Part shown: one piece after another, positions 10,721-64,000 of the stretch
Position numbering within the stretch: position 1 is the stretch's first letter
How the letters are laid out: the number at the start of each line of letters is the position of its first letter
Origin: an uncultured Lachnospiraceae bacterium
Lineage (GTDB): Bacteria > Bacillota > Clostridia > Lachnospirales > Lachnospiraceae
Reading direction: 5' to 3'
Length of the DNA: 64,000 nucleotides
NCBI GenBank assembly: GCA_949949005.1
Contig: CATLHM010000004.1
Coordinates: 124,001-188,000 of the forward strand
Program-made: the position numbers and the translations under genes
Notes under the pieces: model-generated
Database searches by the model: none
What the model saw: only the letters and a program-made list of their open reading frames with translations
Told to the model about the DNA's origin: nothing

Positions 10721-10840
10721 TGACAAAAATTCAGGGGAAATAAAGGTATATTGTTCCTTGCTTTGGGGAATAATAGCTCATATAAGCCAAATGCTTATGG
10801 CAGATATTCCTTAAGCCGGGAACAATCTAGTGCATATTGC

Positions 10841-10960
10841 TGAAAACGATTTCCATCAGGAAAATCAAGGTCTGCAGCCCGGCGCGTTGTATGAAAAAAA
10901 GAACTTTACAGGAAAGAAATCAAGTGGTAACCTTTTTATAGACACGAGAAAACGTTTTCT
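10841..10960 (+). promoter_or_regulatory. two cre-like palindromes before the HPr-like gene
   Basis: TGAAAACGATTTCC at 10841-10854 and the perfect 14-bp palindrome AGAAAACGTTTTCT at 10947-10960 resemble CcpA/LacI-family cre operators (TGNAANCGNWNNCA). They precede an HPr-like gene by 34-150 bases, which makes carbon-catabolite control plausible. Resemblance only. Confidence 0.4.
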
Positions 10961-10993
10961 TGCCTGTAACATGGAAGGGGAAAGGCGGTAATT

Positions 10994-11221
10994 ATGAAGC
11001 AGCGGCAAATTAGACTTAAATTAGAGGAAGTAAAGGATTTCGTGACGGCGGCATCCAGGTGTGATTTCGATGTGGACGTTTTTTATAACAGATTTGTGGT
11101 GGACGCCAAGTCAATTGTGGGAGTGCTGGGGCTTGATCTGAACCGAATTCTGACAGTGTCTTACAACGGGTATAATCCGGAATTTGAAAAAATGATTAAT
11201 CGGCTTGCGAAGGCGGGTTGA
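10994..11221 (+). CDS. HPr-like protein lacking the active-site histidine
   Basis: A 75-residue protein. The C-terminal two-thirds (FYNRFVVDAKSIVGVLGLDL, then a variable strand and a terminal helix EKMINRLAKAG) match HPr of the phosphotransferase system, including the Ser corresponding to HPr Ser46 (Ser40 here). The loop that carries His15 in HPr is missing: the N-terminus is a continuous KLEEVKDFVTAAS. So it cannot accept phosphate from enzyme I, but could be phosphorylated by HPr kinase, as with B. subtilis Crh. Strong ribosome site (GGAAGGGGAAAGG). Single gene followed by a terminator. Role as catabolite co-regulator is inferred. Confidence 0.75.
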   Translation: MKQRQIRLKLEEVKDFVTAASRCDFDVDVFYNRFVVDAKSIVGVLGLDLNRILTVSYNGYNPEFEKMINRLAKAG

Positions 11222-11256
11222 AAAAGGGCAGGGACTTTTGAGGTCTCTGCCTTTTT
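11221..11256 (+). terminator. terminator after the HPr-like gene
   Basis: AAAAAGGGCAGGGAC pairs with GTCTCTGCCTTTTT across a TTTTGAG loop, beginning at the last base of the stop codon. Confidence 0.85.
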
Positions 11257-11415
11257 GGTCTTTGCTGTGAAAAATTTCTGATTATCCCCTTTTTATATCA
11301 GGAAAATATAGTTTAATGATTATATCCAAGCTCAGCGACTGTCTACCATTTATTTAGCCCCATAAAACGGAATTGCATAGTCTGGAGGAGCTTGGTATAA
11401 AATCATTATAATTTA

Positions 11416-11592
11416 TTACTCGTTTTTTAATGGCGGTTGTTGATATAATTTTCGATTTATTTCATTTCTTAAAATCTCAATTTCTGCTTGTGCAGCTTCT
11501 TGTCCACCACTTTTTAAATGCCTTTCTATTCGCTCAACTAAAGTTAATTGATCAAAAAGAGCAGCATTTAATTCTTTTTCATTAGATGGCAT
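11416..11592 (-). CDS. 58-residue hypothetical protein
   Basis: A small gene on the minus strand starting ATG at 11592 behind a strong GGAGGTGAAACG ribosome site and ending TAA at 11416. The product starts MPSNEKELNAALFDQLTLVE and has a glutamate/alanine-rich helix (AAQAEIEILRNEINRKL) that could form a coiled coil; the end is QQPPLKNE. TGCTACAAT at 11640-11648 (minus strand) is a good extended -10. Base composition is markedly AT-rich compared with neighbours. I do not recognise the family; the helical, charged character would suit a small regulatory or antitoxin-like protein, but nothing shows this. Confidence 0.65.
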   Translation of the reverse strand: MPSNEKELNAALFDQLTLVERIERHLKSGGQEAAQAEIEILRNEINRKLYQQPPLKNE

Positions 11593-11791
11593 ATCGTTTC
11601 ACCTCCTTCAATTTTACAGGAAAGTTATTTGATATGCTCATTGTAGCATAAATATAAAAGCTTTTCTATATGTATTTCTTATCCGTATAATAACTTGTGA
11701 TAACCTATTAGGTACTATTTTTGCTGTACTGTCTTCTGTCACGAACAGCTGCTACCTCTATAAGGCAACAAAAACTGCATATAAGAATCCA

Positions 11792-11888
11792 TTGACTCCC
11801 TGTAACGGATAGCGTACTATCTTTACAGGGAATATGCGTTGCCGAAAAAACTCGGCATAAAGGTTTAAAAAAGGCCTGTGGCCTTTTT
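11792..11888 (+). promoter_or_regulatory. helicase promoter, palindrome and leader terminator
   Basis: TTGACT (11792-11797), 17 bases, TACTAT (11815-11820) form a promoter upstream of the helicase. A palindrome TCCCTGTAA (11797-11805) / TTACAGGGA (11823-11831) spans from -35 to beyond the -10, as an operator would. AAAAAGGCC-TGT-GGCCTTTTT at 11868-11888 is a compact intrinsic terminator between this promoter and the gene, so expression may be attenuated. The rest of 11593-11791 holds the minus-strand promoter of the small gene and nothing else I can identify. Confidence 0.5.
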
Positions 11889-11959
11889 CAAAACGGGAAT
11901 TTGTGCTGTCGCGCAAAAAAATTCCCATCCTGATTTGAAAGCCGCCTGGCGGCGGCAGA

Positions 11960-14428
11960 ATGGCGGTTAAGATGGAGATACGGATATCGGTCAGGAAGCT
12001 GGTAGAATTTATACTGCGTTCCGGGAATATAGACAATAGAAGAGTAACCTTCAGCGAGACGGCCATGCAGGAGGGTGGAAGGATTCACCGTATGCTTCAG
12101 CGGGGGATGGGGGCGGACTATCAGGCGGAGGTGTTCCTCCGGTATATCTATCCCACGCCGGACTATGATATTTGCATTGAGGGAAGGGCGGACGGGATTA
12201 TTACCGAGAGAGGAGGGCATACCGGGAGAAGATCGGAACTTCCGGGCTGGCCGGAGGTAGAACGGCAGCAGGTGGTAACCTTCGAAGATAAGCCCAGGGC
12301 TCAGAGAAGGAAGGAGCTTGTCACCATCGACGAGATCAAGGGCACATACCGGGACATAGACAAAATGAAAAGCGCGGTTCCGGTACATTTGGCCCAGGCC
12401 AGGTGCTATGCCTACATATACGGAAGCCAGCATGAGCTTGCGCAGGTAAGGGTGAGGCTTACTTATTGTAATATAGACACGGAGAGAGTTCGGTACTTTC
12501 ATTTTGAATACTCCATGGAGGAACTCAGAGAATGGTTTGAGGATGTGATGGGGCAGTATCGGAAGTGGGCGGATTTCCGGTTTGCGTGGCAAAAGCTCCG
12601 CACGGACTCCATCAGGGAGCTGGCCTTTCCTTTTCCCTACAGGGAGGGGCAGAAGGAGCTGGCTTCCTATGTTTACCAGACCATCTATCACAAAAGAAAG
12701 TTGTTTATCGAAGCACCTACCGGCGTGGGTAAAACGATATCTACCCTGTTTCCGGCCATCAAGGCTCTGGGAGAGGGGCTGGGACAGAGAATCTTTTATC
12801 TGACGGCAAAGACGATCACCCGAACCGTGGCGGAGGAGACGCTGGGGCTTATGCGAGAGAAGGGGCTTCGCTGCAAATCCATCACATTGACTGCCAAGGA
12901 CAAAATCTGTTTTATGGGGGAGAGCGAGTGTAATCCGGATTACTGTCCTTACGCCAGGGGCCACTTCGACCGGGTGAATACGGCCATGTATGAGTTGTTG
13001 ACCAATCTGGACAATATTACCAGGGAGGTGATCGAGAGCTGTGCCATGAGCCACAGGGTATGTCCCTTTGAGCTGGGGCTGGATGTGAGCCTTTATGCGG
13101 ATATCGTGATCGGAGACTATAATTATCTCTTTGATCCTCATGTGTACCTGAAACGTTTCTTTTCGGAGGGAGTGAAGGAGGAGTATATTTTTCTCATAGA
13201 CGAGGCCCACAACCTGGTGGACAGGGGGCGGGAAATGTACAGCGCCCTTCTTAGGAAGGAAGATTTCCTTGCCCTGAAAAAGACGATGAAGGAATACGAC
13301 GGCGGAATTTGTTATCAACTAAGCGAGTGCAACAGAGAAATGCTGGAAATGAAGCGGGAGTGCGAGGATTATGTGTATCTTGAACGGGAAGATATAGAGG
13401 CCTTTACAGGAACCCTGATCAGGCTCTCCCGGGCCATAGACAGGTATTTGGAGGAGTATGAGGACAGCCCGGTGAAAAAGGAGCTGCTGGAATTTTATTT
13501 CCAGGTTTCCCATTTCCTGCAAATCTATGACAAGCTGGACAAGGCCTATGTGATCTATAACCAACTGGAGCCGGCGGGCGGATTCTTCATGAAGCTCCTC
13601 TGTGTGGATCCATCCAAAAATCTCCGGGAATGTATGGCCAGGGGAAGGAGTACGGTTCTTTTTTCCGCTACCCTTCTGCCGATTCAGTATTATAAAAGGC
13701 TGCTGGGGGCCAACCCCGAGGATTATGAGGTTTATGCCCGCTCGGTTTTTGATGCCCGCAGGCAGAGGCTGTTCATTGCGGAGGATGTGACAAGCAGATA
13801 TACCAGGCGTTCCAGAGAGGAATACTTAAGCATTGCCGCCTATATACACCGTATCACCTCCCAGAGGGAAGGAAATTATATGATCTTTTTTCCTTCCCAT
13901 GCCTTTATGCAGGAGGTCTGTCAGGTTTATGAGGACAGGTACCTGGACGAGTCCCGGGAGGAAACTATTTTTCAGGAGGAAGCCATGGACGAGGAGAGCC
14001 GAGAGGCTTTTCTGGCACAGTTTGCGGAAGGAAAGGGGAAAACCCTGCTGGGGTTCTGTGTACTTGGCGGCATTTTCAGCGAGGGGATCGACTTAAAAAG
14101 GGACAGGCTGATCGGAGCCATCATTGTGGGGACGGGGCTTCCTATGGTGTGCAATGAGCGGGAGATACTGAAAGATTACTTTGAGAGCAGGGGAGAGCCC
14201 GGGTTTGATTTTGCCTACCGGTATCCGGGAATGAATAAGGTGCTTCAGGCGGCAGGAAGGGTGATCAGGACGGTTGAGGATGTAGGAATCGTAGCCCTTT
14301 TGGACGACCGGTTCTGTACGGCCCCTTATCTGAAAATGTTCCCCAGGGAGTGGTCGGATTATGAGACCGTATCTCTGAAAAGGGTTGAGAAGAGGGTGGA
14401 GCGGTTCTGGAATGAATGGCTCGTATAG
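11960..14428 (+). CDS. XPD/DinG-like ATP-dependent helicase with N-terminal PD-(D/E)XK domain
   Basis: An 822-residue superfamily 2 helicase. The N-terminal 200 residues carry a restriction-like nuclease motif: Asp in GRADGII (about 75-81) and EIKG (about 125). The helicase core has Walker A APTGVGKT (about 251), an iron-sulphur domain with four cysteines (in KICF, CNPDYC and VCPFE), a DEAHN box (about 414) and the motif VI 'QAAGRVIRTVED'. This is the Fe-S 5'-3' helicase family of XPD and DinG, which unwinds damaged or recombining DNA. Start ATG 11960 or 11972; neither has a strong ribosome site. The preceding leader contains a terminator. Role in DNA repair fits the rarA neighbourhood. Confidence 0.88.
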   Translation: MAVKMEIRISVRKLVEFILRSGNIDNRRVTFSETAMQEGGRIHRMLQRGMGADYQAEVFLRYIYPTPDYDICIEGRADGIITERGGHTGRRSELPGWPEVERQQVVTFEDKPRAQRRKELVTIDEIKGTYRDIDKMKSAVPVHLAQARCYAYIYGSQHELAQVRVRLTYCNIDTERVRYFHFEYSMEELREWFEDVMGQYRKWADFRFAWQKLRTDSIRELAFPFPYREGQKELASYVYQTIYHKRKLFIEAPTGVGKTISTLFPAIKALGEGLGQRIFYLTAKTITRTVAEETLGLMREKGLRCKSITLTAKDKICFMGESECNPDYCPYARGHFDRVNTAMYELLTNLDNITREVIESCAMSHRVCPFELGLDVSLYADIVIGDYNYLFDPHVYLKRFFSEGVKEEYIFLIDEAHNLVDRGREMYSALLRKEDFLALKKTMKEYDGGICYQLSECNREMLEMKRECEDYVYLEREDIEAFTGTLIRLSRAIDRYLEEYEDSPVKKELLEFYFQVSHFLQIYDKLDKAYVIYNQLEPAGGFFMKLLCVDPSKNLRECMARGRSTVLFSATLLPIQYYKRLLGANPEDYEVYARSVFDARRQRLFIAEDVTSRYTRRSREEYLSIAAYIHRITSQREGNYMIFFPSHAFMQEVCQVYEDRYLDESREETIFQEEAMDEESREAFLAQFAEGKGKTLLGFCVLGGIFSEGIDLKRDRLIGAIIVGTGLPMVCNEREILKDYFESRGEPGFDFAYRYPGMNKVLQAAGRVIRTVEDVGIVALLDDRFCTAPYLKMFPREWSDYETVSLKRVEKRVERFWNEWLV

Positions 14429-14452
14429 TAAACTTACATGCGCCGCTGGCGC
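14427..14452. repeat. 26-base dispersed repeat (inverted copy of 6706-6731)
   Basis: Exact reverse complement of 6706-6731, overlapping the last two bases of the helicase stop codon. It begins AGTAAACTTACATGCGCC and is followed by further GC-rich inverted sequence. Confidence 0.85.
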
Positions 14453-14498
14453 GGCGCACTACCACGGCATGAAAGCCGATTGTTTTTTTCAAAGTAAG

Positions 14499-14540
14499 GA
14501 GCGCAAAAGGTTGTGGATAACTTTTTTGGCGCTCTTTTTA
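14499..14540 (+). terminator. terminator after the helicase
   Basis: GAGCGC and an A-rich extension pair with GCGCTC preceded by TTTTTTGG, followed by TTTTTATG. The loop includes a TGTGGATAA sequence. Confidence 0.7.
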
Positions 14541-14703
14541 TGTGTGGATAGGATAATGGTGGACATGCCTTCATTTTACGCTGATTTTGGCAGAAAAGTG
14601 GGGGAAAACGGGGATAATTGTCAGAAAATGAAGGATTTCGTCAAAAATGACGTCGTGTTTTGCCGGAAAACATTTACTATGACACTTATGTCATTGTGGA
14701 TAA
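14512..14703 (+). promoter_or_regulatory. cluster of DnaA-box-like sequences
   Basis: TGTGGATAA (reverse complement TTATCCACA, the perfect DnaA box) occurs at 14512-14520 and 14695-14703, and TGTGGATAG at 14543-14551, all in the same orientation within a 190-bp gene-free stretch. No dnaA, dnaN or other origin gene is present, so this is not oriC. The rest of 14541-15022 shows no gene. Confidence 0.4.
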
Positions 14704-15022
14704 CTTTGTGGAAATTGGGGATTTCTCCGTTTTTCTTCATTTTTTGCGTGTGTGTTTTTGAGTTTAAATCTGCAAGCCAGAGACTTCAAAACTTAAAAAA
14801 TACTGGGTGAGTCAATATGGAAAGGGCGAAAAAGGGACAAAATTGACCGGATAGGTTCAGCCTGGGGCTAAATAATTGTCTCCTTTTCTATTTTATGATT
14901 CCTCCATCTTTTCGAACTGTGTATACAGAAAGAGCCAAATATGCTAAAATGAGAAAGATCAGTTTGGAAGTATAAAGTGCAAATAGATCATGACAGAAGA
15001 CAGAAAAGAGGAGGAGTATAAG

Positions 15023-16333
15023 ATGTGGGCATATGAAAGCGTTTTTTATCAGATTTACCCGCTGGGATTTTGCGGAGCGCCTTTCGAGAACGATGGTGTT
15101 TTGGCAAACAGAATCAGGAAGGTGGAGGAGTGGATTCCTCACATGAAGAAGCTGAATGTGAATGCCGTCTATTTTTCACCGGTGTTTGAATCTGATACCC
15201 ATGGTTACAATACGAGAGACTACAAAAAGGTCGACACGCGTTTGGGAACCAATGAGGATTTTAAAGAAGTGGTGGAAAAGCTCCACGAGAGCGGAATCCG
15301 GGTGGTGCTGGATGGTGTGTTCAATCATGTGGGCAGAGGCTTTTATCAGTTTCAGGACGTGCTGAAAAACAGAGAGAGCTCCCCCTATCTTAATTGGTTC
15401 CACATCAGTCTGGGAGGAAATTCCAATTATAATGACGGTCTTTGGTATGAGGGCTGGGAAGGAAATTATGACCTGGTGAAGCTGAACCTGCAAAATGAGG
15501 AGGTGGTAAACCATCTTCTGGATGCGGTGAAATACTGGGTGGATGAGTTTGATATTGACGGCCTGCGTCTGGATGTAGCCTACTGTCTGGATGAAAATTT
15601 CGTCAGAAGGCTGCGGAGCTTTACGGAGTCTCTTAAGCCTGAGTTTTATCTTTTGGGAGAGATGCTTCACGGCGACTATAACCGGCTGGTTAATGACAGT
15701 ATGCTTCATTCCGCCACCAACTATGAATGCTATAAGGGATTGTATTCCAGCTTTAACAGCATGAATATGTTTGAGATTATCCACTCCCTCATGCGTCAGT
15801 TCGGCCCGGAAAACTGGACGCTCTATAAGGGAAAACATTTGCTCTCCTTTGTGGATAACCATGATGTCACAAGGGTGGCAAGTATTTTGGGCAATGAAAA
15901 GCACCTGCCTTTGATCTACGCCCTGTGCTTTGGAATGCCGGGGATTCCCTGTGTATACTATGGAAGCGAGTGGGGGGCAAAGGCAGAAAAGAGGGAAGGA
16001 GACCAGGCCCTTCGGGTCAGCTTCCCGGAGCCGGAGTATAATGAGCTCTCGGAGTGGATCAGCTCTCTGGCTAAGGCAAAGAGAGAGTCCGACGCCCTGA
16101 ATTACGGAACTTTCCGCTCTGTGGTGCTCACCAACAAGCAGTGTATTTTTGAGAGGAAGACCGAGAAGGAGAGAGTGCTGGTGGCAATCAATGCGGACAG
16201 CGAAGCCTATGTGGCGCATTTTGACGCAGGCTGCGGGCTGGCGGAGGATCTGATCTCCGGTAAGATGCACGATTTCGGCGGCGGAAGTGAGCTCCCTGCT
16301 TATAGTGCGTTTTTCTGGAAGATGGAGCGGTAG
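15023..16333 (+). CDS. GH13 alpha-amylase-family glycosidase
   Basis: A 436-residue cytoplasmic (no signal peptide) alpha-glucan hydrolase. The four conserved GH13 regions are visible: DGVFNHVG (about 97), GLRLDVAY with the nucleophile Asp (about 184), GEMLHGD with the acid/base Glu (about 213) and FVDNHDV (about 277). N-terminus begins MWAYESVFYQIYPLGFCG, typical of maltogenic amylase/cyclomaltodextrinase relatives without their N-terminal extra domain. I use ATG 15023 with AGGAGGAG seven bases upstream rather than the longer frame from 14990. Likely processes intracellular maltodextrins or glycogen; a branching enzyme is encoded at 50.9 kb. Monocistronic. Confidence 0.88.
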   Translation: MWAYESVFYQIYPLGFCGAPFENDGVLANRIRKVEEWIPHMKKLNVNAVYFSPVFESDTHGYNTRDYKKVDTRLGTNEDFKEVVEKLHESGIRVVLDGVFNHVGRGFYQFQDVLKNRESSPYLNWFHISLGGNSNYNDGLWYEGWEGNYDLVKLNLQNEEVVNHLLDAVKYWVDEFDIDGLRLDVAYCLDENFVRRLRSFTESLKPEFYLLGEMLHGDYNRLVNDSMLHSATNYECYKGLYSSFNSMNMFEIIHSLMRQFGPENWTLYKGKHLLSFVDNHDVTRVASILGNEKHLPLIYALCFGMPGIPCVYYGSEWGAKAEKREGDQALRVSFPEPEYNELSEWISSLAKAKRESDALNYGTFRSVVLTNKQCIFERKTEKERVLVAINADSEAYVAHFDAGCGLAEDLISGKMHDFGGGSELPAYSAFFWKMER

Positions 16334-16400
16334 ATGGCAATCCTCAGCCCACTGGAGATGGCAGGAAAAAGAACGGGCAGTTCGGAGATTGTTTAAGAGA

Positions 16401-62275: not shown

Positions 62276-62526
62276 GTGGTATCCCTCTTTTCATGTTCCA
62301 TATACTTCTGTCATTAATATAACACACAATATCTAGTGGGGGCAACCACAAAAAGAAACAAAGAAAAGGGTTCCATATAGGCATTTTGCTGTATCTGGTA
62401 CCGACCTGTTCTGTTCCATAATATCTGGGAAGATCGGGGCTGCCGGACAGCGCCATGAACCTGGCGGGTGAACCGTTGAAGAAGACCTGCATAAGATATG
62501 ATAACCATAAATATAGAGGTAGCCCC

Positions 62527-63045
62527 ATGCCCAAGAACATTTTACACAGTACCCAGAACGGTACGGATAATACCTACACCGGAAAGCTTCAGATTAATGT
62601 AACCTCCTCGCTGGGCCTTATTCCTGTACAGGATGCCACAATAACCATTTCTTATACAGGCGTGCCGGATGTGACGATAGAAAAAATCAGCACGGATTCC
62701 TCCGGGCAGACGGAAATGGTGGATTTGCCGGCTCCGCCCCCGGAGTACAGCTTAAACCCTGTGGAACAGCAGCCCTACTCGGAATACAATATTCAGGTGG
62801 AGGCTCCCGGCTATGAGCCGGTGATGGTATCTGGAACAGAAATTTTGCCCGGAGTTACAGCCATGCAGCCGGTGCAGCTTACACCGGTGGAAACCACGCA
62901 GCAGGAGGAAGAGGTGATCGTAATACCGGATCACACGCTGTATGGAGAGTACCCGCCCAAAATACCGGAGGACGAGATCAAGCCCATGGACGAGAGCGGG
63001 GAGATTGTTTTGAGCAGGGTAGTGATACCGGAGTATGTGGTTGTA
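62527..63045 (+). pseudogene. N-terminal fragment of a spore-type peptidoglycan-binding/cortex-lytic-like gene, interrupted by a mobile element
   Basis: ATG 62527 (GAGG upstream) opens a frame with MPKNILHSTQNGTD, a carboxypeptidase-regulatory-type beta domain (LQINVTSSLGLIPVQDATI ... YEPVMVSG) and a conserved tail 'VIPDHTLYGEYPPKIPEDEIKP...VVIPEYVVV'. From memory, Lachnospiraceae homologues continue from EYVVV into a long domain found in spore cortex-lytic or SpoIID-like proteins of over 400 residues. Here the frame leaves the family at about 63045 and runs into the antisense of a recombinase, ending at 63276. The gene is therefore split; the rest should lie at the other end of the inserted element. 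The family name is from memory, the interruption is visible. Confidence 0.75.
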
Positions 63046-63063
63046 GACTATAAGATAGTACTA
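63034..63063. other. probable attachment-site junction (attL-like)
   Basis: Between the last family-conserved codons (about 63037-63045, TATGTGGTTGTA) and the recombinase stop codon (63064-63066) lies the boundary of the inserted element. I cannot see the other end, so the core sequence is not defined. Confidence 0.55.
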
Positions 63064-64000
63064 CTACTTAATCAAAAAATCAAACCCGCAAAGCTTATGG
63101 GTTTCAGGGTTTATGTAGATACCTTTGATTTTGTCGTGCCAGAAGGCTCTCTTGTGCTCCTTATCCAGCTTTTCATAAGCGGCCTGCCAGTTGCCGGAGA
63201 ATGCAGCGAAAAGCGGCTGGCAGGCCCTTTCATCAGGACTCTTTGTCAGGTCTTCCAATTTGCCGATCTTTTCTGATAGCAAATCATATTGCATATCGTA
63301 TTCCGCCTCTTCTATTCGTCCTTTCTGGAAGATAAGATTCAAGCGCGAAAGTTCTTTTTTTAATTTCTCTATCTCTTTGGCTGGGTCAGCCTTTAATTCT
63401 TTTTGAAGCATGAGACGAAAAGACATTTGCGCATCGGCAAGTTCCTGAAGCTTCTGGTCAACGTTTGCAAGGATGTATTTCTCGACGGTGCTTTCATAGA
63501 TGTTTATTCCACAGGTGCAAAGGGTGCGGGAGCGCTGCTTCTGCTTGCATAGATAGACAGGGCTTATATATACTTTCCCGCTGGGCTTTTTGGTCTTATG
63601 CTGGTATCCGGCAAAGTTGTGTCCGCATACAGGGCATTTGATCAGGCTGGAAAAGATATAGGGCTCATTCTTTCCTGAAAATGTTTTTAATGAGCCGATT
63701 TCTTTTATACTGTCAAATTGTTCTTTGGTGATGTATGGTTCACAGAAATTATCCTTTCCGTAAGCATGGCCATAATAGACCGGATTTTTGAACATATAGT
63801 GTATGGTGGTTGCGGGGGGAGCGGATTCTGCGTATTTTTCAATGATATAGGTGGCGGTGGCACGCTTGGAATGGGTAGTAAAATAGTGGGAAAATAAATC
63901 CTCTACAATATGCCGTGTCTTTTCATCTTTCACAAACTTCTTGTTTTCTGCTTTATAGCCGAAGCTTGCATGTGAGCCGGAAAGAATTTCGTTTTTTCGG
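63064..64000 (-). CDS. large serine recombinase (C-terminal part; N-terminus beyond window)
   Basis: Open on the minus strand from the window edge to TAG 63064, so at least 312 residues; the catalytic N-terminus lies beyond base 64000. Visible: recombinase-domain sequence (SGSHASFGYKAENKKFVKDE, IVEDLFSHYFTTHSKRATATYIIEKY, NPVYYGHAYGKDN), a zinc-ribbon CPVCG ... C near the middle, a long coiled coil (about PAKEIEKLKKELSRLNLIFQKGRIEEAEYDMQ) and the end FLIK. Such integrases of phages and ICEs act at att sites next to their gene. It points away from the spore-type gene it interrupts. Confidence 0.9.
   Translation of the reverse strand, partial: RKNEILSGSHASFGYKAENKKFVKDEKTRHIVEDLFSHYFTTHSKRATATYIIEKYAESAPPATTIHYMFKNPVYYGHAYGKDNFCEPYITKEQFDSIKEIGSLKTFSGKNEPYIFSSLIKCPVCGHNFAGYQHKTKKPSGKVYISPVYLCKQKQRSRTLCTCGINIYESTVEKYILANVDQKLQELADAQMSFRLMLQKELKADPAKEIEKLKKELSRLNLIFQKGRIEEAEYDMQYDLLSEKIGKLEDLTKSPDERACQPLFAAFSGNWQAAYEKLDKEHKRAFWHDKIKGIYINPETHKLCGFDFLIK

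What the first reader, a model, noticed from the sequence alone, without database searches (positions are those of the whole stretch)
62527..64000. Mobile element inserted into a spore-type gene (possible skin-like developmental element)
A spore cortex-lytic/peptidoglycan-binding-type gene starts normally but leaves its conserved frame at about 63045, directly at the 3' end of a large serine recombinase on the opposite strand. The gene's promoter and N-terminal half survive, as with sigK-skin or spsM-SPbeta. If the element excises precisely during sporulation, the gene would be restored.
Basis: partly seen in the sequence, partly recalled or inferred. Interest (0 to 1): 0.85.

Follow-up and report, generated by a model that had tools for sequence, protein, structure and literature searches.

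The report
Spore germination gene split by excisable elements
A gene that gut bacteria need to reopen their spores (sleC) is cut by a phage in this genome, and many related bacteria carry similar exact cuts; because the separated pieces stay well preserved, the inserts are probably removed when a spore is made, so mobile DNA may control whether the spore can germinate.

Summary
The gene at 62527 is the 5' part of sleC, the clostridial spore cortex-lytic enzyme (full-length relative matches PDB 9h68, E 8e-127). It stops at a large serine recombinase (LSR) of a temperate phage. The 3' part lies on contig C10, right behind a second, unrelated LSR; synteny with two intact relatives shows that both contigs flank one locus. 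The gene thus looks cut at two sites (A, residue 171; B, residue 228); the middle piece is not in the assembly. In the genus sleC is split in 14 of 37 genomes; spoIVA in 0 of 36 assessable. All 13 B-type LSR hits (E<=1e-60) in those 37 genomes sit inside sleC or a sleC paralogue. Removing elements in silico restores the frame in relatives, including Parablautia muri at site A. In two species pairs that share a probably old insertion, the halves show dN/dS 0.009-0.031. A sigK-like promoter is common. Best reading: skin-like intervening elements in a new target gene, excised in the mother cell. Excision itself was not observed. New variant of a known kind.

The parts
62472..62498 (+). sigK-like (mother-cell) promoter candidate: AC, 16-nt gap, CATAAGATA
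   Evidence: Position: motif AC-N16/17-CATANNNTA in 57 of 81 loci against 0.62 expected in mononucleotide shuffles; alignment. The consensus letters are recalled.
62527..63044 (+). 5' part of sleC (spore cortex-lytic enzyme), about 172 codons, reading frame open
   Evidence: identity of the gene by PDB 9h68
63040..63044 (+). attL core of element A (GTTGT), site A
   Evidence: By homology to P. muri, where AGTTGT is shared by attL and attR; own attR not assembled
63045..63063 (.). element-side attL arm, similar in three LSR1-family elements
63064..64000 (-). large serine recombinase LSR1 (462 aa; continues past the window to contig C4:188452)
63040..64000 (.). left end of element A, a temperate prophage: about 13 kb of it on contig C4, including an S24-type CI-like repressor, a superinfection-exclusion lipoprotein and a replication initiator, up to the contig end at C4:200110

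Best explanation
The window holds the 5' exon of sleC, interrupted by a temperate phage that a large serine recombinase inserted at a fixed site (site A). In the same genome the gene is also cut at a second site (site B) by another LSR element. Most likely these are skin-type intervening elements. In growing cells sleC is split and silent. In the sporulating mother cell, where sleC is switched on by sigK, the recombinases with their directionality factors cut the elements out exactly, the reading frame is rejoined, and SleC is packed into the spore so that it can later germinate. The forespore chromosome keeps the elements. Shown: insertion at fixed sites, restorable frame in relatives, recombinases tied to this gene, strong constraint on both halves, a common sigK-like promoter, and spoIVA in the host. 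Inferred: that excision happens, that it is confined to sporulating mother cells, and that both insertions lie on one chromosome in this strain.
For: 3' part of the gene on C10 right after a second LSR. The genes left of the window copy and the transporter gene right of the C10 copy flank the intact gene in two close relatives, L034 and L037. sleC split in 14 of 37 genus genomes, spoIVA in 0 of 36 assessable. All 13 B-type LSR hits at E<=1e-60 in those 37 genomes lie in sleC or its paralogue (one search read). In-silico removal gives an uninterrupted ORF in 21 of 21 pairs examined, 16 with an unambiguous shared core of 4-15 bp. No stop codons in the compared parts of 13 C-halves and 30 N-halves. 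Pairs L045/L047 and L050/L053 share an element about as diverged as the host gene, yet the host parts show dN/dS 0.009-0.031. In six genomes the only sleC-family matches at E<=1e-8 are the two separate halves: G001, G003, G007, G014, G024, G033 (the element itself was not seen in G003). sigK-like promoter. sleC is listed as a sigK target in C. difficile (PMC5025042 table passage).
Against: No reads or cultures: excision was not seen. Element A's right end and the middle exon are missing from this incomplete assembly. No sigK-like promoter was found upstream of the LSR or candidate RDF genes (0 of 23, expected 0.16), so the timing switch is unidentified. Median pN/pS against the nearest intact gene is higher for interrupted genes than between intact ones (0.085 v 0.042 for C-halves, 0.116 v 0.073 for N-halves), though far below 1. 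Some elements have moved between species recently, which also fits a mere landing site. One split sleC (L044) has no detectable LSR in its element. G002 and G030 have an intact sleC while a B-type LSR splits only their paralogue.
Confidence: 0.8

Rival explanations
1. Landing site only: phages and LSR elements favour sleC because it is dispensable in vegetative growth; the gene is simply lost in carriers and no regulated excision occurs.
For: The LSRs of L092 and L096 are nearly identical (4 nonsynonymous and 14 synonymous differences over 577 codons) while the host gene is far diverged (N-part pS 0.63), so insertions can be recent. No mother-cell promoter found for the LSRs.
Against: No stop codon in the compared halves; probably old shared insertions with dN/dS 0.009-0.031 in the host parts; six genomes whose only sleC-family matches are two separate halves; spoIVA unbroken in 36 of 37 genomes, the last cut by a contig start.
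Confidence: 0.13
2. Mixed population: some cells of this species carry only element A and others only element B, and the assembly joined them; the gene is not in three pieces on one chromosome.
For: The window lies in a 41-contig assembly with 59% estimated completeness, and the middle exon was not found. By my reading, none of the other 36 genus genomes shows both insertions in one gene.
Against: Both parts have the same identity (89%) to P0001, and a missing contig is unsurprising at that completeness.
Confidence: 0.35
3. The truncated 5' ORF is itself a functional shortened protein.
For: The ORF stays open 76 codons past the junction in the window.
Against: The tail past site A is 76 codons here and 2 codons in P. 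muri, with no likeness, and the SpoIID-like match (186-263 of P0001) lies wholly after site A.
Confidence: 0.02

Closest known systems
skin elements in sigK (Bacillus subtilis; Clostridioides difficile skinCd, PMC5025042: abstract, outline and passages seen)
   Same: LSR element inside a mother-cell sporulation gene; excision rebuilds the gene
   Different: Target is sleC, not sigK; several insertion sites in one gene; two element types in the window's genome; excision not yet observed
gin element in gerE (Bacillus cereus ATCC10987; PMC5595907: part 1 of 6 of the text and passages seen)
   Same: LSR cassette without phage genes in a spore gene, short direct-repeat core
   Different: gin is 28.6 kb with three recombinases; the site-B elements with both ends on one contig here are 2.0-9.4 kb (longer ones would mostly not fit in the 10-kb flanks), usually with one LSR of a family tied to this gene
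yin element in yabG (Clostridium botulinum V73; PMC10747680: abstract and passages seen)
   Same: Phage-like element in a sigK-regulated gene of the same pathway (that paper states that YabG processes pre-pro-SleC in C. difficile)
   Different: yin is reported from one strain; sleC insertions recur across a genus and a family
SP-beta prophage in spsM (B. subtilis; PMC4191935: start of abstract in a search listing seen)
   Same: Temperate phage inserted in a spore gene, like element A
   Different: Different host, phage and target gene

Membership tests
Sporulation gene-intervening (skin-type) element | Lies inside the ORF of a sporulation gene | tested here: met
Sporulation gene-intervening (skin-type) element | Encodes a serine recombinase next to an element end | tested here: met
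   LSR1 19 nt from the core; LSR2 at the C10 junction
Sporulation gene-intervening (skin-type) element | Direct-repeat core at both ends; removal restores the frame | tested here: inconclusive
   Met in relatives, including P. muri at site A; in the window's own genome only attL of A and attR of B are assembled
Sporulation gene-intervening (skin-type) element | Carries a recombination directionality factor | tested here: inconclusive
   A small ORF at or just before the LSR start in 9 of 14 site-B elements; function unknown, no Pfam match for the three tested; none identified for element A
Sporulation gene-intervening (skin-type) element | Excised in the mother cell during sporulation | not testable with these tools
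   Needs cultures or reads
Sporulation gene-intervening (skin-type) element | Host is a spore former | tested here: met
   SpoIVA ATPase family in the window's genome, 399.5 bits against a cut-off of 26.6; of the 14 control genomes one was over the cut-off (B. subtilis and T. maritima matched at all). One marker only.
SleC cortex-lytic enzyme | Full-length homology to a characterised SleC | tested here: met
   PDB 9h68, 'Spore cortex-lytic enzyme pre-pro-form', 427 bits over residues 17-418 of the intact relative P0001; that this chain is SleC is recalled from the name
Temperate phage (element A) | Lysogeny and replication genes beside the integrase | tested here: met
   S24 CI-like repressor, superinfection-exclusion lipoprotein, replication initiator, D12 methylase; structural genes not seen, the contig ends first

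The most novel reading that the evidence does not exclude
sleC is a long-term home for 'DNA introns': a lineage of serine recombinases that, in this genus, is found only in sleC-family genes. In the window's strain the gene is in three exons and needs two different recombinases to be rebuilt in the mother cell, so that spores can germinate only if a phage and a second element both leave on time. In a relative (G025) one recombinase, held in the split sleC paralogue, may serve two split genes in trans.
Probability: 0.42. Interest if true: 0.92.

Novelty: new variant of a known kind. Interest (0 to 1): 0.82.

Why it matters
Programmed excision from spore genes is known from a short list of genes (sigK, spsM, spoVFB, gerE, yabG; list in a passage of PMC10747680). 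Here it appears as a recurrent trait of Lachnospiraceae, common spore formers of the mammalian gut, and it hits the enzyme that lets spores germinate. It would put transmission of commensals under the control of mobile elements, and it offers many natural replicates, some in named strains, to ask when such elements are domesticated, how excision is timed, and how a recombinase family becomes tied to one gene. It also warns that annotation may call this gene broken in many gut genomes.

Tried and rejected
Truncated protein as the natural form: rejected. Pseudogene: not supported by the comparisons made. Middle exon in the same assembly: sought by protein and by DNA; only the sleC paralogue on C29 (55%), the C10 edge of the 3' part and two short DNA matches were found. 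A near-identical phage in IMG/VR that would carry attR: three phage-A proteins were tried. LSR1 gave three loci, the best 79% identical (L150), whose record shows only the N-part of sleC. The PAPS-reductase-like protein gave 102 confirmed, of which the best 80 were kept (best 83% identical); none of these 80 loci held sleC parts or LSR1 at the limits used. The Ltp lipoprotein gave none. LSR2 found nothing in IMG/VR. A sigK-like promoter upstream of the LSR or candidate RDF: none in 23. One search gave a wrong C-half value for L044, because the first alignment ran on into the element; I disregard that row, but it is inside the printed median. Some rows report stop codons inside a match; those I looked at (P. 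muri; L044, L050 and L053) lie past the junction, the others were not checked one by one. In one search the automatic pick was wrong or missing for L044, L050, L053, L054, L164, L165 and L169; redid these seven. The joins were required to be in frame, so the evidence is the shared core at the junction rather than the frame as such. L164's core is ambiguous (2 or 5 bp). An earlier count said 10 of 14 for the small ORF; the output shows 9 of 14.

Literature: all ten searches of the held PMC library were used. No paper in what they listed is, by its title or the start of its abstract, about elements inside sleC; several listings were partial (for example 15 of 305 papers, 8 of 61, 20 of 24). No paper held all of 'skin element', 'sporulation' and 'Lachnospiraceae'. 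Subscription journals and preprints are not covered.

Full report
What is there. The ORF that starts at 62527 follows a conserved protein family for 172-173 codons and then leaves it at 63040-63045. A 462-aa large serine recombinase (LSR1) ends at 63064 on the other strand. The window is C4:124001-188000 of a 41-contig, 3.0 Mb assembly with an estimated completeness of 59%. C4 ends at 200110, still among phage genes. The genes there are those of a temperate phage: S24-type CI-like repressor, superinfection-exclusion lipoprotein, replication initiator, D12 methylase, PAPS-reductase-like protein. I call this element A; about 13 kb of it is assembled.

The gene is sleC. The intact relative P0001 (422 aa, from locus L005, genome G006) matches PDB 9h68, 'Spore cortex-lytic enzyme pre-pro-form', over residues 17-418 with 427 bits, and carries a SpoIID-like domain and a peptidoglycan-binding domain. 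In C. difficile, sleC is listed among sigK targets (PMC5025042, table passage), and a sleC deletion lowers germination about 3 logs (PMC6021603, passages). Upstream of the start codon, a sigK-like arrangement AC-N16/17-CATANNNTA occurs in 57 of 81 loci examined, the window included, against 0.62 expected from mononucleotide shuffles; the -10 part alone in 72 of 81 against 5.7. Of the 24 without the full motif, some are loci whose match starts inside the gene; others truly deviate. The consensus letters are recalled; the paper looked at (PMC517825, passages) gives them only as a figure.

The 3' part exists, and there is a second element. P0001 finds the 5' part on C4 (residues 1-171, 89%) and the 3' part on C10 (residues 223-422, 89%). 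On C10 the 3' part follows directly on another LSR (LSR2, 526 aa, its start cut off by the contig end). LSR2 is 24% identical to LSR1. In the close relatives L034 and L037 the intact gene is flanked on the left by the window's LacI and ABC-transporter genes (80-95% identical) and on the right, 5-6 kb downstream, by the C10 transporter gene (87-88%); on C10 that gene follows at once, as it does in L039. So C4 and C10 are most likely the two sides of one locus. The segment between site A (residue 171) and site B (residue 228) was not found in the assembly, only the sleC paralogue on C29. Either the gene is in three pieces on one chromosome, or the assembly merges cells with A and cells with B.

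Site A in other hosts. LSRs 74% (P. muri D42-62, a named strain) and 79% (IMG/VR contig L150) identical to LSR1 sit at the same point of their own sleC. In P. muri both ends are known, on two contigs. They share AGTTGT, and removal gives a 421-aa ORF that aligns with P0001 without a gap. The arms next to the P. muri core hold an inverted repeat, TAGGTGTACT and AGTACACCTA. The other eight LSR1-like hits at E<=1e-60 in the genus are at most 53% identical and lie on other contigs than sleC (one search read).

How common it is. The best 80 of 167 confirmed GTDB loci were kept for the N-part. In 28 of these 80 the gene is not full length: by my reading are cut at site B, one at site A (L041), one just before it (L097), and two at about residue 304 (L035, L038). 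In a few (L060, L077) the contig ends within about 200 bases of the cut. In the genus, by my reading, sleC is intact in 23 of 37 genomes and split in 14: 11 at site B (one of them the window's genome, which also has site A), one at site A only, two at about residue 304. In G003, counted among the 14, both halves end at contig ends and the element is not seen; in G022 only the 3' half is found. The control gene spoIVA gives one unbroken match in 36 of 37, the last being cut by a contig start. Fisher p is 2.7e-5, or 6.5e-5 without G003. Across the family, 131 of 200 genomes, one per genus, have the gene at E<=1e-45. The listing of matches was cut off. By my reading of what it shows, in 17 of the 131 the best match ends at one of the known places (6 at site B, the window's included; 11 near residue 293-307); for some of these only one half is visible at that limit. 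Six more are partial for unclear reasons (G121, G141, G170, G172, G202, G221), and one (G101) has no visible row.

A recombinase family tied to this gene. With LSR2 as query at E<=1e-60, 13 hits were found in 12 of the 37 genus genomes. All 13 lie inside a split sleC or a split sleC paralogue, none elsewhere (one search read). Three genomes had more first-look candidates than were scored (G008, G021, G029). The paralogue alone is the target in G002 and G030, whose sleC is intact. These LSRs form two subfamilies about 35% identical that use the same site B. A small ORF (61-116 aa) at or just before the LSR start was found in 9 of 14 site-B elements; in 8 of the 9 it reaches into the LSR start. 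I take it as a candidate directionality factor. No Pfam family matched the three tested.

Excision in silico. For 19 pairs on one contig and two pairs on two contigs, deleting from core to core gives an uninterrupted ORF of 379-423 aa in 21 of 21 (some begin after the true start). In-frame joining was a condition of the search, so the informative part is the shared core at the junction: 4-15 bp and unambiguous in 16, ambiguous in L164, 2-3 bp in L044, L050, L053 and L165. Elements at site B of sleC with both ends on one contig run from 2.7 to 9.4 kb; longer ones would mostly not fit in the 10-kb flanks fetched.

Are the halves alive? No stop codon appears in the compared parts of 13 C-halves or 30 N-halves. 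Median pN/pS to the nearest intact gene is 0.085 and 0.116, against 0.042 and 0.073 between intact genes. This is higher but far below 1; the nearest intact neighbours are often far away, synonymous sites are often saturated, and one C-half row (L044) is an alignment error. The stronger test uses species that share an element. L045/L047 and L050/L053 hold the same element with the same cargo. Element genes differ by pS 0.44-0.54 and 0.29-0.42, host parts by 0.35-0.49 and 0.49-0.53, so the insertion probably predates the split of the species. The host parts show dN/dS 0.028-0.031 and 0.009-0.030. In G001, G024 and G033 (the genomes behind L045, L050, L053; estimated at least 90% complete) no other sleC-family match was found at E<=1e-8. 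Such constraint on a gene that is never whole would be hard to explain. In contrast, L092 and L096 have nearly identical LSRs in diverged hosts, so elements also move between species.

Mechanism and limits. The best reading is a skin-type switch: split and silent in growth, rejoined in the mother cell when sleC is due. Shown are the insertion sites, the restorable frame in relatives, the constraint, the recombinases tied to the gene, the promoter pattern and one sporulation marker in the host (SpoIVA). Not shown are excision and its timing: no sigK-like promoter was found upstream of 23 LSR or candidate RDF genes, and no reads were available. In G025 the sleC element (L044) has no LSR detectable with four LSR queries, while its split paralogue has one (L169), which suggests action in trans; that assembly has 8% estimated contamination.

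Comparison. Intervened spore genes named in the passages read are sigK, spsM, spoVFB, gerE and yabG (PMC10747680). sleC is not among them, and the listings of ten library searches showed no paper on it (see Tried and rejected for their limits). The kind is known; the target, the several sites per gene, the recombinase family tied to it and the probable double split appear new. I therefore file it as a new variant of a known kind.

Noticed in passing
L044:10690-15812: The sleC-interrupting element of G025 has no detectable LSR; the only B-type LSR hit of that genome lies in the element that splits its sleC paralogue (L169). One recombinase may serve two split genes.
   Followed up: partly
L050, L053, L055 (about 10790-16383): Site-B elements carry a Bmp-type ABC transporter and a thymidine kinase as cargo (Pfam tested for L050 only); L055 has the same cargo with an LSR of the other subfamily.
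   Followed up: partly
L045:10803-12455 and similar ORFs in L044, L047, L051, L054, L166, L167: A large DUF5722-type protein recurs as cargo of site-B elements (Pfam tested for L045 only; the others by likeness of the sequence).
   Followed up: partly
L097:10644-15550: Three ORFs that look by eye like serine recombinases in a row next to a sleC cut just before site A, reminiscent of the three recombinases of the gin element; no family search was run on them.
   Followed up: no
L165:12353-13996: At the residue-304 site an ORF that looks like a serine recombinase runs in frame into the 3' part of sleC, a recombinase-PG-binding fusion as long as the element is integrated (by eye).
   Followed up: no
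L119:1563-1583: The last six codons and the stop of LSR2 are written in the core and host sleC sequence in another frame, so excision would change the recombinase's own C-terminus.
   Followed up: no
L173:4059-4847: In G030 (10% estimated contamination) a second sleC 3' part starting near site A lies beside genes that look by eye like ParA/ParB and replication genes: perhaps a plasmid-like element at site A.
   Followed up: no
L002:8669-8905 (contig C4): Small ORF next to LSR1 with a weak match, below the curated cut-off, to Hol_Tox holin-like toxins.
   Followed up: no
L166, L167, L168, L169: The sleC paralogue family (about 43% identical to P0001, with extra domains) is itself split at the equivalent of site B in G002, G030 (two copies) and G025.
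   Followed up: partly
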